Shown piece by piece: positions 3,656 to 9,302 of a DNA stretch of 64,000 nucleotides. This stretch comes from Opitutus sp. GAS368. GTDB taxonomy: Bacteria > Verrucomicrobiota > Verrucomicrobiia > Opitutales > Opitutaceae. The DNA is taken from NCBI GenBank assembly GCA_945903465.1, contig CAMDOF010000002.1, forward strand, positions 1-64,000. Reading direction: 5' to 3'. Each line of letters starts with the position of its first letter. Within the stretch, counting starts at the first letter, position 1. A model generated the notes under the pieces. The model saw nothing but the letters and a program-made list of their open reading frames with translations, searched no databases and was not told where the DNA came from. Made by a program: the position numbers and the translations under genes.

Positions 3656-3694
3656 CCAAAAAAAAAGGCGCCTACCATCGAGGTCGGCGCCTTT
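3656..3694 (-). terminator. Rho-independent terminator of the alanine-rich repeat gene
   Basis: Read on the minus strand, a GC-rich stem (AAAGGCGCC pairing with GGCGCCTTT) closes a loop of about 13 bases and is followed by a run of nine T residues. It lies 20 bases past the stop of the alanine-rich protein gene. It is the classic intrinsic terminator layout. Confidence 0.85.
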
Positions 3695-3714: not shown

Positions 3715-4719
3715 TCAGTTCGAACGGCTGACCGTAATCACTGGGACCGTTGGCGTAGTAACAACCGGAGCCACAACAACCGGAGCCACCACCGGAGCCA
3801 CAACCGCTGGCGCCACTGTTTGGACCGCGGTCGTAATCGTGGCCGCCTGCGTTGGTGCCGCCGTGACCGCGGCTTGGGCAACTGCCTGAGCCTGCGTCGG
3901 GGCCGCGGTCACCGCCGCGGTCGTGATTGCTGCTGCTGCCGCCGCCGGAGCGGCCGTAACCGCCGCTGTCGTGATTGCCGCTGCTGCCGCCGGCTTCGCC
4001 GTAACCGCCGCCGTCGTGATTGCTGCTGCCGACGCGGCCGGGGCCGCGGTCACCGCTGCGGTCGTGATTGCTGCTGCTGCTGCCGCCGGAGCGGCCGTAA
4101 CCGCCGCCGTCGTAACCGCCGCGGCTTGCGCCGGGGCCGCGGTAACCGCCGCTGTCGTGATTGCCGCTGCCGACGCCGGCTTTGCCGTAACCGCCGCCGT
4201 CGTGATTGCTGCTGCCGACGCGGCCGGGGCCGCGGTCACCGCCGCGGTCGTGATTGCTGCTGCTGCCGCCGCTGGAGCGGCCGTAACCGCCGCCGTCGTA
4301 ACCGCCGCGGCTTGGGTCGGGGCGGCCGTAACCGCCGCTGTCGTGATTGCCGCTGCCGACGCCGGCTTTGCCGAAACCGCCGCCGTCGTAACCGCCGCGG
4401 CTTGCGCCGGGGCCGCGGTAACGGCCGCTGTCGTGATTGCTGCTGCTGCTGCCGCCGGAGCTGCCGTGACTGCCGCCGTCGTGATTGCCGCTGCCGAGGT
4501 CGGCGCCGCAGTTACCGCCGCGGTTGTGATCGCCGCGGCCTGCCCAGGATTCGCTGAAACCGCATCTTGAACGATCTTAGCGATTTCGACGTCTGAAGCG
4601 TTCGCCGCTTTCGCAGCGGCTACAGCTCTTTGGACACCGGAAACAACTGCAGTCTGTGCAAAAGCGGTGAACGAGGTTAAACTGACTAGCGCGGCTAACA
4701 ACAACGAGCGAGTTTTCAT
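3715..4719 (-). CDS. Secreted alanine-rich tandem-repeat protein
   Basis: The 334-residue protein begins with a clear Sec signal peptide (MKTRSLLLAALVSLTSFTAFA, cut after residue 21). A short linker (residues 22-60) follows. Residues 61 to about 298 consist of some 16 tandem copies of a 14-16-residue unit built around ITTAAVTAAP, 14 of them close to identical. The tail is a proline/valine-rich segment (APVVAPVV, residues about 300-325) ending in ITVSRSN. Composition is almost only A, T, V, P and I, with very few charged residues after the linker. No catalytic family matches. I infer a structural fibre, stalk or surface coat protein. The neighbour at 4962-6683 is a FecR-domain protein carrying scattered copies of the same unit and the same VSRS tail, so the two probably act together. 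An AT-rich 240-base gap upstream probably holds its own promoter. Confidence 0.8.
   Translation of the reverse strand: MKTRSLLLAALVSLTSFTAFAQTAVVSGVQRAVAAAKAANASDVEIAKIVQDAVSANPGQAAAITTAAVTAAPTSAAAITTAAVTAAPAAAAAAITTAAVTAAPAQAAAVTTAAVSAKPASAAAITTAAVTAAPTQAAAVTTAAVTAAPAAAAAAITTAAVTAAPAASAAAITTAAVTAKPASAAAITTAAVTAAPAQAAAVTTAAVTAAPAAAAAAITTAAVTAAPAASAAAITTAAVTAKPAAAAAITTAAVTAAPAAAAAAITTAAVTAAPTQAQAVAQAAVTAAPTQAATITTAVQTVAPAVVAPVVAPVVVAPVVTTPTVPVITVSRSN
3826..4539 (-). repeat. In-frame tandem repeat array (42-48 bp units)
   Basis: About 16 consecutive units of 42, 45 or 48 bp encode variants of ITTAAVTAAP plus a spacer (AQAA, TQAA, AASAA, AAAAA or KPASA). Units differ by whole codons and by synonymous GCC/GCG/GCT exchange, so the array has expanded by codon-phase duplication under selection for the protein frame. 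Higher-order blocks repeat too: the order of spacers AQ-AAA-AAS-KP recurs twice. Confidence 0.9.
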
Positions 4720-4961
4720 ATGATTGTCGAATTAGATAAAAAAATTAAGCGGAGGTGGCTATGCGATAAATCGTAAATAGAGCAGCAATAACAAACAATT
4801 TCTCGTTAAGACTTCAATGCAAATAAAATAAATCTATAGTCCAAAAAAATTAAACTGAGCTCGGTTAAATCACGAGAACTTGGCCAATGCAGTTCCATTG
4901 TCGATCGATCCTTAGTCCACCCACGCCTTCAAATCTACGTGAGTGGACAGCCGATTTTTCA

Positions 4962-6683
4962 TTATTCCCCCGAACGACTCACGTTAATGATGGGATTAAC
5001 CGGCGTCACTGGCGTGGTCACTGGTGGCGCCGCGACCGCTGGAGCTGGAGCCACGACAGCTGGGGCCGGAGCCACCACCGGCGCTGGGGTGACGACCGCA
5101 GGAGCGACGGTGGTGGTCGTACCCGCGGCTGAGGTCGTCGCAGTCGTCACCGCGGTGGCGCCCGTATTTGACACGGATGAGTTAGAAGTCGACGTGGTCG
5201 CAGTACCGCCGGTGGTCGCGGGGGCCGCGGTCGCGGTGGATGATACGCTGGTCGAACCCGAGGCGCTATTAGTACTGACGGAAACACTGACGACTGGCGC
5301 GCTGACGCTGGCTACGACGACACCGCCGCTGGAGGCTCCCGCAGTGGCACCAGAGGAGGATCCGGAATTAACCGCGGTGCTGATCGCGGCGGCCGTAATC
5401 GTGGCCGCGGCCGCATTGCCAGACTGCGCGGAAGACGCCAGCGAAGTGGTCGTGGCGGTGTTGGCAACCGTGCTCACCGCGGAAGTAACAGCTGTGCTGT
5501 TCGCGGCTTGCGTGGCGGCTTGAGTAATTTGCGCGACAGAAGCGGCCGGATTGGCGGCTTTGACGGCGGCGACGGCCTCGCTCACCTTCGTCTGCACAAC
5601 GCCTTGCGCGGCACCCTGCGCGGCGGCGGCGGCTTGATTGGGGGCGGCCGTGACAGCGGCCGTCGTGACGGCAGCGACCGCCGCGTTTAACGAAGTTTGG
5701 TTTCCGCCGGTGCTTGAAGTTGATGACGAGACCGCGGCGGCGGCGGCTTGGGTCACGGTGCCGATCTGGGCCGACGCGCCCGCGGCGGAAACGGCACTCA
5801 CCGCGGCCTGGGTCACGGCGGAAATGGCCTTTAAGGTCGCCTGTTGATTTGCCCCCGTCGCGGAGCCGACGCTGACAGTCGCCTGCACGGCGACCTGCAC
5901 GATCGCAGCGGCTTGGGTCGGAACCGCAGTTACGGCCGCACTGGTCACAGCTGCGAGAAGGCTCGTGGCAACGGCCGCTGAGCCCACGGAAGTCGAGGCA
6001 GCCGACACATTGCTTGCGACCACCTGAACGGCGGCGACAATATCTGCCTGAGCCGCCGGATTATTTTGAACGAAAGACGCCACACTTTGAGAAGCCGTCG
6101 CCTGGCCGGTGACCGCTTGGCCAAAAGGAATAATGATCGGAGGAATACCGGGGCCACGATCGATGATGACGTTGCCGCTGAAGGTCGCTACCGAGGTATC
6201 GGAACCGCCACCAGCGCTGGGAATTACCGTGACACCATAAACCGTCCCACGCGCTGCCGCCACGCCGCGCGGCGTCCGAATACCAAATTCCGTCACCGGG
6301 CGCTTGGAGGGGTCCAGCGTCGAGATGATATTCCCTTTTTCGAGATTCAACTCAGCCACGCGTTTGCCAGCGTCGGCGCCTTGGCCCATTCGCAAAACGC
6401 GCACCTCGACCTTGGATCCGCCACGAATCGTGGCCACCGCGCCCTCGAAAGTTTCGAGAAATACTTCCACCTTGGGAGGGGTTTCGATGAGCGCGCCCTC
6501 TACTAGTTGAGCGTTCACCATCGCCGGCGCGGAGACGCCACCCTTGGGGGTTACGGTCGCTCCGGACCCGTTAATTTTAACGATTCGCGCAGTGATATTT
6601 TGGGCCCAAGCAGAGGAAGGAACCAACAAAACCAAGAGGAGGCTAAACAGGATTTCGGAACAGAATCTGTGAGGTAGGTTCAT
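4962..6683 (-). CDS. Secreted FecR-domain protein with alanine-rich C-terminal region
   Basis: The 573-residue protein has a Sec signal peptide ending SSAWAQ near residue 28. A FecR-type domain covers residues about 30-200: a GSGATVTPKGG start, a charged beta region, and the diagnostic TPRGVAAARGTVYGV stretch near 140-155. From about residue 210 the chain becomes alanine, valine, serine and threonine rich. It contains degenerate copies of the ITTAAVTAAP unit seen in the gene just downstream (SAAVTAVPTQAAA, TTAAVTAAPNQAAA). The C-terminus is PA/PV-rich and ends in INVSRSGE. In classical systems FecR is an inner-membrane anti-sigma regulator; this one has no cytoplasmic domain and no sigma factor beside it, so I infer an exported structural or anchoring role. 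A 240-base AT-rich gap separates it from the repeat gene. Confidence 0.8.
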   Translation of the reverse strand: MNLPHRFCSEILFSLLLVLLVPSSAWAQNITARIVKINGSGATVTPKGGVSAPAMVNAQLVEGALIETPPKVEVFLETFEGAVATIRGGSKVEVRVLRMGQGADAGKRVAELNLEKGNIISTLDPSKRPVTEFGIRTPRGVAAARGTVYGVTVIPSAGGGSDTSVATFSGNVIIDRGPGIPPIIIPFGQAVTGQATASQSVASFVQNNPAAQADIVAAVQVVASNVSAASTSVGSAAVATSLLAAVTSAAVTAVPTQAAAIVQVAVQATVSVGSATGANQQATLKAISAVTQAAVSAVSAAGASAQIGTVTQAAAAAVSSSTSSTGGNQTSLNAAVAAVTTAAVTAAPNQAAAAAQGAAQGVVQTKVSEAVAAVKAANPAASVAQITQAATQAANSTAVTSAVSTVANTATTTSLASSAQSGNAAAATITAAAISTAVNSGSSSGATAGASSGGVVVASVSAPVVSVSVSTNSASGSTSVSSTATAAPATTGGTATTSTSNSSVSNTGATAVTTATTSAAGTTTTVAPAVVTPAPVVAPAPAVVAPAPAVAAPPVTTPVTPVNPIINVSRSGE

Positions 6684-8048: not shown

Positions 8049-8540
8049 ATGAGTAGTGTCGGGCGAGCCGCTTCACCGTCGCCCTTCGCTTTGCGCTACC
8101 CTCGTCAAACCGTGCCGGCGGTTTTCCCGCACACGGCTTACCGAGTCCCCTTTGCTTCGGATTGGTTTCAGCGGAGTTTATCGCGTCCAAACCGCTTTGA
8201 GCGGCCAGTTCCCCAGCTGGTAGGGTGCTTCGCCTCGGTCGTCGGTGAAGAAGTTGCCGAGCCCGTGGGTGCAGCTGGATTCCCGCCACAATCACGTCGC
8301 AGCCGGTGGCGCCCCAAGGCCTGCGGTTTATCAGACACGTGCGTGCGGTTGCCGTACTGAAACGCCTGCGCCCAGCCTCCGGTGATCTGGTTGACCTTTC
8401 GGACCACCGCCACCGCCGCTTGGTCTCGCGTGCGCACTTTCACCGGCGGCGCGAACACCGTCTATTTCTGGCGATCAGGAAATCACCGGAGCCGGGTGAA
8501 CTCTTGGTGCGGTAAGCGCATGTCATGCAGGAGGAAAAAG
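8049..8540 (-). mobile_element. Group II intron 3' remnant (domains V and VI, maturase fragment)
   Basis: On the minus strand, 8139-8107 folds as a group II intron domain V: a lower stem AAGCCGTG/CACGGTTT of 8 bp, a 2-base 3' bulge, an upper GCGG/CCGC stem and a GAAA-type loop, 33 nt in all. A GGGCGA/TCGCCC hairpin (8084-8061) stands where domain VI belongs, and the element ends in CTACTCAT at 8049, a typical intron 3' end. Upstream, 8458 to about 8370 encodes VVRKVNQITGGWAQAFQYGN, which resembles the maturase X region of intron reverse transcriptases. Stops and frame changes break the reading frame, and domains I-IV and the polymerase are gone. The first bases of the 3' exon form a perfect 6-bp hairpin (8030-8048). 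The left end (about 8540) is uncertain. Confidence 0.7.
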
Positions 8541-8639
8541 TTTAAGAAGAGTTTTTTGATGAAGTTTCTAAGAAAATACTCATTCGGGCGAAGGTGAGAT
8601 TAAAATCGCCAGAAATGCACGATTTCACGATCGCCGCTG

Positions 8640-9302
8640 GCACCGGCGTGTAGCCGGAGCGCTGCTGCCAGTCGGCGGGCAGCCGGGCGAGGACCCGCGG
8701 CCAGCACGTGGCTCGCCAGATTGGGCACCTGTACGTGCGCCGGGATGAGCCGGCGGCTGTTCTTGACCACCAGATGGAGGTTTTCGCGCCGCTGCCCGGC
8801 CGACCAGCCGATCCACCGGTCACGCCCGGCGACCGCCCACGCCGCCGCACTAAAAGCCGGGGCCGCCACCGGACCTTTTCCACTGCGCACCAAATACCGC
8901 AGTTGCGCGCCCCATAACGGACCGGCACCGAGATAATGGAACTGGTCGAGCAGTTCGTTCCATTCGCGCGACAACGCCGAAGATCCCGCGGGCAACAGGA
9001 CAATCTCCAGCGGACCGAGCGACTCCAGCGCCCCCGCGATGGGCGGCCATGGGGCCGGCGGACCGGCGCGAACCTGACGCGCCCGGTGGCGGTCCGCGCC
9101 GAGGCGGCCGCAAGTGCCCACGGCGCGTCAGCTCGGCCAGCGCCTTGCGGGCCCCCATCGTCGCCGGCTGAGCGGAGGGGGACATCCAGCTCAGGCGCGC
9201 ACACAGCTCGCGCGCCAACGCTCGCCGCGAACAATCCGGGGCCCGCGGCTGGAGTTCCTTCAGCAGTTCGTCCGAGGTTTCACGACCGGCCAGGGGCATG
9301 CC
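8640..9302 (-). pseudogene. Degraded DUF4338 (DruA-like) gene, split over three frames
   Basis: Three overlapping frames on the minus strand carry consecutive parts of one DUF4338 protein. The N-terminal part (9299 to about 9120) reads SRRALARELCARLSW and MGARKALAELTRRGHLRPP. The middle (about 9000-8700) reads REWNELLDQFHYLGAGPLWG, QLRYLVRSG, RDRWIGWSAGQRRENLHLVV and VPNLASHVLA. The C-terminal part (about 8700-8645) reads RVLARLPADWQQRSGYTPV. A one-base shift at about 8697-8701 joins the second and third, and another shift lies near 9110-9120. The protein stops short of the conserved end after GYTPV. DUF4338 is the domain of Druantia DruA and also occurs as a solitary, multicopy, transposase-like gene. 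No other Druantia gene is present, so a dead mobile gene is likelier than a defence system. Confidence 0.75.

What the first reader, a model, noticed from the sequence alone, without database searches (positions are those of the whole stretch)
3715..6683. Two-gene alanine-rich repeat system with shared unit and shared VSRS tail
One secreted protein is built of about 16 copies of an ITTAAVTAAP-type unit; its neighbour combines an exported FecR domain with degenerate copies of the same unit. Both end in a PV/PA-rich stalk and a near-identical terminal motif (ITVSRSN versus INVSRSGE). Seen directly: repeats, signal peptides, tails. Inference: a fibre or coat (repeat protein) plus an anchor or assembly factor (FecR protein), with the tail as an attachment or sorting tag. 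No characterised family I know has this layout. An AT-rich 240-base gap between them suggests separate promoters and levels.
Basis: partly seen in the sequence, partly recalled or inferred. Interest (0 to 1): 0.7.

Follow-up and report, generated by a model that had tools for sequence, protein, structure and literature searches.

The report
FecR sensor and helical-repeat partner
Two neighbouring exported proteins of a Verrucomicrobiota bacterium, one a FecR-domain protein whose relatives sit beside a cyclic-nucleotide sensor and the other a likely rod of short helices, end in the same short tag, which changes in step in both and hints at an undescribed docking or sorting signal on the cell envelope.

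Summary
Gene A (3715-4719, -) encodes an exported protein with 14 strict copies of [IV]TTAAV[TS]A[AK]P kept by strong purifying selection (pN/pS 0.01). Gene B (4962-6683, -) encodes an exported FecR-domain protein. Both end in ...VSRS.... The window's genome keeps a cyclase that groups with those B-linked ones, but on another contig. The C-terminal motif [VI]S[PR][SA] is the most striking feature: 40 of 52 complete B proteins, against 0.0008 per window elsewhere in them; 10 of 12 first genes of an exopolysaccharide-export operon; A genes in 8 of 10 genomes with B and 0 of 7 without. Within a genome A and B tails resemble each other more than A tails resemble other A tails, while shared residues use the same codon little more often than chance, so recent gene conversion is unlikely. 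Best reading: an envelope FecR-CHASE2 signalling module with a helical companion, joined by a shared docking or sorting motif. Its partner is unknown; a TonB-box explanation was tested without support. New variant of a known kind.

The parts
3715..4719 (-). Gene A: exported alanine-rich helical-repeat protein, 334 aa
   Evidence: ORF; pN/pS 0.01 among repeat units; homologues with the same N-terminus; AlphaFold mean pLDDT 89.9, pTM 0.80
4657..4719 (-). Signal peptide of A (about residues 1-21)
   Evidence: by eye; similar N-termini in relatives
3814..4593 (-). Predicted alpha-solenoid of A: 17 consecutive 14-residue helices, residues 43-302
   Evidence: DSSP on the AlphaFold model; 14 strict unit copies at residues 64-274
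3718..3759 (-). C-terminal tail of A, TTPTVPVITVSRSN
   Evidence: sequence; pLDDT 51-54; matches the B tail within genomes
3658..3691 (-). Probable terminator of the A transcript (GGCGCC, 13-base loop, GGCGCC, T run)
   Evidence: by eye; not listed by the scan, which allows loops of 3-8
4720..4961 (.). AT-rich gap between B and A, 242 bases, 37% G+C
   Evidence: no minus-strand sigma-70-like match
4962..6683 (-). Gene B: exported FecR-domain protein with helical region, linker and tail, 573 aa
   Evidence: ORF; PF04773; homologues
6603..6683 (-). Signal peptide of B (about residues 1-27)
   Evidence: by eye
6108..6596 (-). FecR-fold beta domain of B (residues 30-192; Pfam match at 6168-6443)
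   Evidence: match to the PupR signalling domain 6ovk, Z 15.1, rmsd 2.9 over 137
5331..6083 (-). Helical region of B (residues 201-451) with one exact and three loose copies of the A unit
4965..5018 (-). C-terminal tail of B, TTPVTPVNPIINVSRSGE
   Evidence: motif in 40 of 52 complete relatives; pLDDT under 50 for residues 560-573

Best explanation
B is the exported FecR component of a FecR-CHASE2 cyclase envelope-signalling module of Opitutae; A is a FecR-less helical-rod companion. Shown: A's repeat is under protein-level selection; B has a FecR domain; relatives of B often lie directly downstream of a CHASE2 adenylate/guanylate cyclase; the window's genome has a cyclase that groups with those B-linked ones, at another locus; A, B and the first gene of an exopolysaccharide-export operon carry the same short C-terminal motif, and the A and B tails match within a genome. 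Inferred: the motif (roughly (D/N)P-x-I-x-V-S-[PR]-[SA], in a disordered proline-rich tail) docks these proteins to one common envelope partner that co-evolves with them. B, held there, would report envelope or matrix state to the CHASE2 sensor, changing cAMP or cGMP and so tuning exopolysaccharide; A, a rod of about 17 short helices with the same tag, would occupy the same dock as spacer, matrix component or competitor. Partner, ligand and direction of control are not known.
For: FecR: PF04773 31.4 bits, and a FecR match in 17 of 17 aligned relatives at E<=1; fold match to the PupR signalling domain, Z 15.1. Cyclase: CHASE2 (E 3.4e-35) plus Guanylate_cyc in a representative; same strand, 1-772 bases upstream of B in 33 of 57 loci. 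Window's genome: its C7 cyclase groups with the B-linked cyclases of L094, L104 and L129 (95/95; 60% identity to the nearest). All 20 of the 57 genomes (own included) with a B match at E<1e-10 have CHASE2. Tail: 40 of 52 against a background of 0.0008; persists in B proteins with a charged linker (L101, L124, L132). A tail strict in 8 of 10 genomes with B, 0 of 7 without. A/B tails match within genomes: permutation P 14/362880; 7.9 identities within pairs against A-A 4.3 and B-B 5.4 between genomes, while 33 of 69 shared residues use the same codon, 25.6 expected. EPS link: at a locus X-BBP2-Wza-Wzc, X has the motif in 10 of 12 genomes; in one genome (L070) the first gene carries FecR plus repeats. 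Literature, passages only: FecR-CHASE2 neighbours in a Burkholderia biofilm operon (PMC5192318); a CHASE2-cyclase construct and cAMP in succinoglycan production (PMC5498481).
Against: No experiment. In the window B is next to a yqeY-like gene, not to the cyclase, and 24 of 57 loci show no adjacent cyclase (some are cut short). CHASE2 also occurs in 18 of the 33 genomes without a B match, and is absent from two with a weak B match, G052 and G054. A-like genes without B occur with CHASE2 (G008, G024) and without it (G007, G009, G010, G015, G020). The tail (here [VI]S[PR][SAN] in the last 14) is kept in 18 of 21 complete B without an adjacent cyclase and in 24 of 31 with one, so it is not simply a cyclase ligand. 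Genomes without the X-type Wza keep the B tail (G013, G018, G021; G016 as VSPN). The window genome's own X has VSVAR. Of 27 non-EPS A-like genes only 9 have the strict motif. Genomes are related, so the tests overstate independence. AlphaFold of A rests on 7 low-complexity sequences.
Confidence: 0.45

Rival explanations
1. One reading: A is a surface fibre or coat subunit, B its anchor or assembly factor, and the tail is their mutual attachment tag.
For: A is a very regular repeat protein under strong selection predicted as a long alpha-solenoid; A and B tails match within genomes; A's strict tail is seen mainly where B is present.
Against: An A-like gene follows B in only 6, perhaps 7, of 57 loci, yet B keeps the tail in 40 of 52; A-like genes occur without B; B's frequent neighbour is a cyclase.
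Confidence: 0.2
2. The shared tail is only a relic: A arose from B (or both from a common ancestor) by duplication that lost the FecR domain, and the ends are little constrained.
For: Same order of signal peptide, helices, proline-rich linker and tail; tandem arrangement; one exact repeat unit in B; at the EPS locus FecR-like and repeat-type first genes replace each other.
Against: Motif far more frequent at the end than elsewhere in B (40 of 52 against 0.0008); within-genome matching with codons close to the chance level.
Confidence: 0.2
3. The tail is a TonB-box-like strand that couples these proteins to TonB.
For: The hydrophobic-x-V-S pattern resembles pre-plug strands of some TonB-dependent receptors of this genome (for example EITVSAT in L224).
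Against: A tail-derived profile does not score the pre-plug regions of 30 receptors significantly above other regions of the same receptors (p 0.07; p 0.070 with 27 after leaving out three regions that were evidently mis-cut).
Confidence: 0.05

Closest known systems
FecR-CHASE2 gene pairs (Burkholderia BiofilmReg operon: LysM-FecR protein plus CHASE2 histidine kinase; PMC5192318, passages read)
   Same: Exported FecR-domain protein encoded next to a CHASE2 sensor; biofilm context
   Different: Here the sensor output in relatives is a class III nucleotide cyclase, B has a long helical region and conserved tail in place of LysM, and a FecR-less repeat protein may follow
Sinorhizobium meliloti CHASE2 cyclases CyaD1/CyaD2/CyaK with Clr (PMC5498481 and PMC13001267, passages read)
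   Same: CHASE2 adenylate/guanylate cyclase signalling linked to succinoglycan, with a FecR-domain protein (SMc02177) among the Clr targets discussed
   Different: No shared tail or helical-repeat protein in the passages read; FecR gene not described there as the cyclase's neighbour
FecR/PupR anti-sigma regulators (PF04773; 6ovk)
   Same: FecR signalling-domain fold
   Different: B starts with a signal peptide (by eye) rather than a cytoplasmic anti-sigma domain, and no sigma-factor gene was recognised beside it
PEP-CTERM/EpsH exopolysaccharide-associated protein sorting (PMC1569441, passages read)
   Same: Short C-terminal signal on otherwise varied exported proteins, associated with exopolysaccharide loci
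   Different: No PEP motif, C-terminal transmembrane helix or basic cluster in the tails of A and B
Designed helical repeat proteins (8cws Z 18.7, rmsd 4.3 over 273; 5cwb DHR4 Z 12.8, rmsd 2.0 over 130)
   Same: Arrangement of short consecutive helices in the A model
   Different: A is natural, alanine/threonine-rich with a 15-16-residue period; helical repeats reach such Z values easily, so no relationship is claimed

Membership tests
FecR domain proteins (PF04773) | Profile match above the curated cut-off | tested here: met
   31.4 bits, cut-off 24, on the domain alone; 32.3 bits in the whole-genome search; no hit in the full-length scan
FecR domain proteins (PF04773) | FecR signalling-domain fold | tested here: met
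   6ovk Z 15.1, rmsd 2.9 over 137; 4m0n Z 14.4, rmsd 2.8 over 135
FecIR-type anti-sigma regulators | Cytoplasmic N-terminal anti-sigma domain and neighbouring ECF sigma factor | tested here: not met
   B begins with an export signal (by eye); nearest neighbours scanned are YqeY, HAD-like and DUF2237; release-factor and PrmC-like ORFs beyond are named by recall
FecR-CHASE2 signalling pair | FecR gene adjacent to a CHASE2 sensor gene | tested here: inconclusive
   Met in 33 of 57 relatives; in the window's genome the related cyclase is on another contig
FecR-CHASE2 signalling pair | Functional coupling of the two proteins | not testable with these tools
   needs mutants and cyclic-nucleotide assays
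PEP-CTERM sorting signal | PEP motif followed by transmembrane helix and basic cluster at the C-terminus | tested here: not met
   A and B end in VSRSN and VSRSGE after a proline-rich stretch without a hydrophobic helix (read by eye)
TonB-box proteins | Motif resembling the genome's own receptor TonB boxes | tested here: inconclusive
   p 0.07
Known helical-repeat families in Pfam (TPR, ARM, HEAT and others) | Profile match of A | tested here: inconclusive
   0 families at E<=1 for A, 0 at E<=0.1 for its relative in L056; biased composition may hide matches, as the FecR match of full-length B was missed
Known solenoid folds in the PDB | Structural match of the A model to a natural family | tested here: inconclusive
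   Best natural-protein rows Z about 7 with rmsd above 8, within the range common for helical repeats

The most novel reading that the evidence does not exclude
The motif [ILVF]-x-[VI]-S-[PR]-[SA] near the C-terminus defines an undescribed envelope docking or sorting system of Opitutae, used by FecR sensor proteins, helical-rod proteins and the first protein of an exopolysaccharide-export operon, with a receptor that co-evolves with the tag in each lineage: a PEP-CTERM-like principle without membrane helix or sortase.
Probability: 0.35. Interest if true: 0.75.

Novelty: new variant of a known kind. Interest (0 to 1): 0.55.

Why it matters
CHASE2 is an extracellular sensor domain whose inputs were called unknown in 2016 (PMC5192318, passage) and of which one route, through an outer-membrane barrel in Sinorhizobium, has since been described (PMC13001267, passage). 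A family of exported FecR proteins that sit beside a CHASE2 cyclase, share a tag with an exopolysaccharide-operon protein and sometimes travel with a helical rod gives a concrete, testable input module. If the tag has a dedicated receptor it would be a further class of C-terminal envelope signal in Verrucomicrobiota, and the within-genome matching of tails is a handle for finding that receptor.

Tried and rejected
Tail as CHASE2 ligand alone: weakened, because the tail is kept in 18 of 21 complete B without an adjacent cyclase (24 of 31 with one). Those genomes may hold a cyclase elsewhere, as the window's does. The A-like genes of five CHASE2-less genomes end in VSGS, but VSGS is also the state in two genomes with B (G025, G003), so it may be a variant rather than a remnant.

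Tail as part of the EPS machinery alone: weakened, because G013, G018 and G021 keep the B tail (G016 as VSPN) without a Wza of the 51-62% identity group (which covered 35 genomes and left out G024-G036).

TonB box: p 0.07 with 30 receptors, but three pre-plug regions (L229, L234, L240) were mis-cut; without them p 0.070 with 27. Two earlier regex attempts at extracting receptor boxes failed. In one search one B tail stood in the list of A tails; all were pooled.

Gene conversion or recent duplication as the cause of matching tails: 33 of 69 identical codons, 25.6 expected from codon usage. Nine genomes were used; G003 was left out because its B is cut at a contig end, and genomes without both genes were not usable.

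Tail profile in the own genome: found only B and missed A itself at E<=10, so it cannot exclude other bearers. A scan of 2309 coding-like ORFs in fetched loci gave 35 distinct tail hits; by my reading all but L127:10538-11026 belong to the A, B or EPS-first-gene sets (two are pieces of interrupted B frames), but the loci were chosen around those genes and overlap.

PDB by sequence: no match to the B-domain profile at E<=1. Ice-binding by regularly spaced threonines in A was considered and not tested. Paper searches: CHASE2 with FecR 3 papers (two opened), Opitutaceae with FecR 0, FecR domain with exopolysaccharide 4 (listing), Verrucomicrobi with C-terminal and sorting signal 9 (PMC1569441 opened), Opitutus with exopolysaccharide and TonB 1 (PMC5615132 passages, not used), CHASE2 with adenylate cyclase 8 (two opened). 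All opened papers were seen as passages only. I make no claim about print beyond those searches.
Full report
What is there. The window is the first 64 kb of contig C2 of an 8.16 Mb draft genome. On the minus strand B (6683-4962) is followed, after 242 AT-rich bases, by A (4719-3715). Upstream of B lies a YqeY-like gene; downstream of A, convergent, a gene with a sub-threshold HAD match. The ORFs beyond it I name prfA and prmC by recall.

Gene A. Fourteen strict repeat units differ by 322 synonymous and 7 non-synonymous single-base codon changes (72 further codon differences had several changes); differences by codon position are 79, 33 and 391. So the array is maintained as protein. AlphaFold, on an alignment of 7, gives an N-terminal helix and then 17 helices of 14 residues, mean pLDDT 89.9 (five models 69.7 to 89.9), with a tail at pLDDT 51-54. 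The best structural neighbours are designed helical repeats (8cws Z 18.7, 5cwb Z 12.8), which for a helical repeat shows arrangement only. Pfam has no match at E<=1.

Gene B. The domain alone scores 31.4 bits against PF04773, and 17 of 17 aligned relatives hit FecR at E<=1; the model's beta domain matches the PupR signalling domain at Z 15.1 over 137 residues. After it come helices (201-451), some strands (464-526) and a disordered tail. One exact and three loose copies of the A unit occur in the helical part; overall similarity to A beyond composition is modest (313 against a shuffle mean of 276.5, maximum 327).

Genomic context. Of 57 loci found in species-representative genomes, 33 have a CHASE2-cyclase ORF on the same strand 1-772 bases upstream of B, and 33 have the HAD-like gene convergent within 2.5 kb (L107 and L120 had no callable B ORF, and several loci are cut by contig ends). 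An A-like gene with a similar tail follows B in L083, L087, L098, L112, L135 and L136, and perhaps L134. The window's genome has two CHASE2 cyclases elsewhere; the one on C7 groups with the B-linked cyclases of L094, L104 and L129 with support 95/95, so the pair seems to have been separated here rather than lost. Among 57 genomes, own included, 24 match B at E<=0.001 and 40 have CHASE2: 22 of the 24 with B, all 20 with B at E<1e-10, but also 18 of the 33 without B. The association is therefore one-sided and partly a matter of kinship. In 252 family genomes the A profile reaches E<=1e-10 in 21; that threshold misses known A-like genes such as those of G007 and G010, so 21 is a lower bound.

The tail. 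In 52 complete B proteins of 57 loci, [VI]S[PR][SA] lies in the last 12 residues in 40, against 0.0008 per 12-residue window elsewhere in the same proteins. It survives when the linker is not proline/alanine-rich (L101 DITIISPSN, L124 NEQIVSPSS, L132 DITIVSPAQ). In nine genomes with both genes, A and B tails match within genomes: 71 identities, permuted mean 47.4, reached by 14 of 362880 permutations; the P/R residue agrees in 8 of 9. In one of the nine (G012) A and B lie on different contigs. Within-genome A-B similarity (7.9 of 13 columns) exceeds A-A (4.3) and B-B (5.4) between genomes, yet shared residues use the same codon in 33 of 69 cases, 25.6 expected. Relatedness inflates the permutation test; the codon result argues against recent copying. 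Across 27 A-like genes outside EPS operons the strict motif is in 9. It is in 8 of the 10 genomes known to have B (exceptions G025 and G003, both VSGS) and in 0 of 7 in which the B search found none (G007, G008, G009, G010, G015, G020, G024); the remaining ten genes (L250-L259 without the L253 repeat of the L135 case) give 1, and their genomes were not searched for B. G020 is only 70% complete. This fits a tail that matters for A when B is present, though the seven include close kin.

A third bearer. Searching the Wza of one EPS operon in 35 genomes and reading the surroundings gave a conserved locus X - BBP2 - Wza - Wzc, preceded by a leuS-like ORF (by recall) in 9 of the 10 newly read loci (the tenth, G003, is cut by the contig end). 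Names rest on similarity to proteins with Pfam hits, of which the BBP2 hits were below the cut-off. Counting L077 and L081, X has the motif in 10 of 12 genomes (LP.[QE][FY]TVSPA-type as a rule); the exceptions are the window's genome (VSVAR) and G003 (VSTAK). X looks FecR-like: sub-threshold PF04773 (E 0.01-0.02) in 4 of 9 ordinary X scanned, and 47.4 bits in L070, where FecR, helical repeats and a TASPS tail occur in one 874-residue first gene of another EPS operon. In G012 and G026 X is an A-type repeat protein. FecR-like and repeat versions thus replace each other at one locus, which ties A, B and X together.

Interpretation. From passages read: FecR-CHASE2 neighbours in a biofilm operon (PMC5192318), a CHASE2-cyclase construct and cAMP in succinoglycan production (PMC5498481), signalling to CHASE2 cyclases through an outer-membrane barrel (PMC13001267), and an mtxA-CHASE2 cyclase cluster in magnetotactic bacteria (PMC4439547). 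I infer that B is the exported partner of a CHASE2 cyclase and that the tail docks B, A and X on a common envelope component, which I could not identify. A CHASE2-only or EPS-only reader of the tail is disfavoured, and a TonB-box reading was not supported.

Verdict. The recurring unit is a FecR protein, often with a CHASE2 cyclase, with a tagged and sometimes FecR-less helical relative. New variant of a known kind, interest 0.55.

Noticed in passing
window 8168-9121 (-): Remnants of mobile elements between the DUF2237 gene and an S1-type ribosomal protein gene (named by recall): a group II intron maturase fragment (PF08388, E 0.0015, below cut-off) and a DruA-family fragment (PF14236, E 1.1e-18).
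   Followed up: partly
L143:5725-9986 (G000:C15): A second FecR gene next to a second CHASE2 cyclase in the window's genome, whose tail (IPASQLSTKP) lacks the VS motif; FecR-type genes in L030-L032 end in IIPTNPGG or IVTTTPGG, perhaps a second tag.
   Followed up: partly
L256:1081-2918 (G104): Two tandem A-like paralogues with near-identical tails (NQGSASPN and NQGSSSPN) and no FecR-domain match in the 3.3 kb held.
   Followed up: no
G000: 150 TonB-receptor plug matches in one genome, with 150 of 427 candidates scored.
   Followed up: no
window 3820-4570 (+): Long open frames antisense to the A repeat array (245 and 215 aa), probably a by-product of the repeat's codon structure.
   Followed up: no
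L072:8322-11928, also L075 and L080: In relatives without B a TonB-dependent receptor gene lies directly upstream of the A-like gene (Pfam checked for L072 only).
   Followed up: partly
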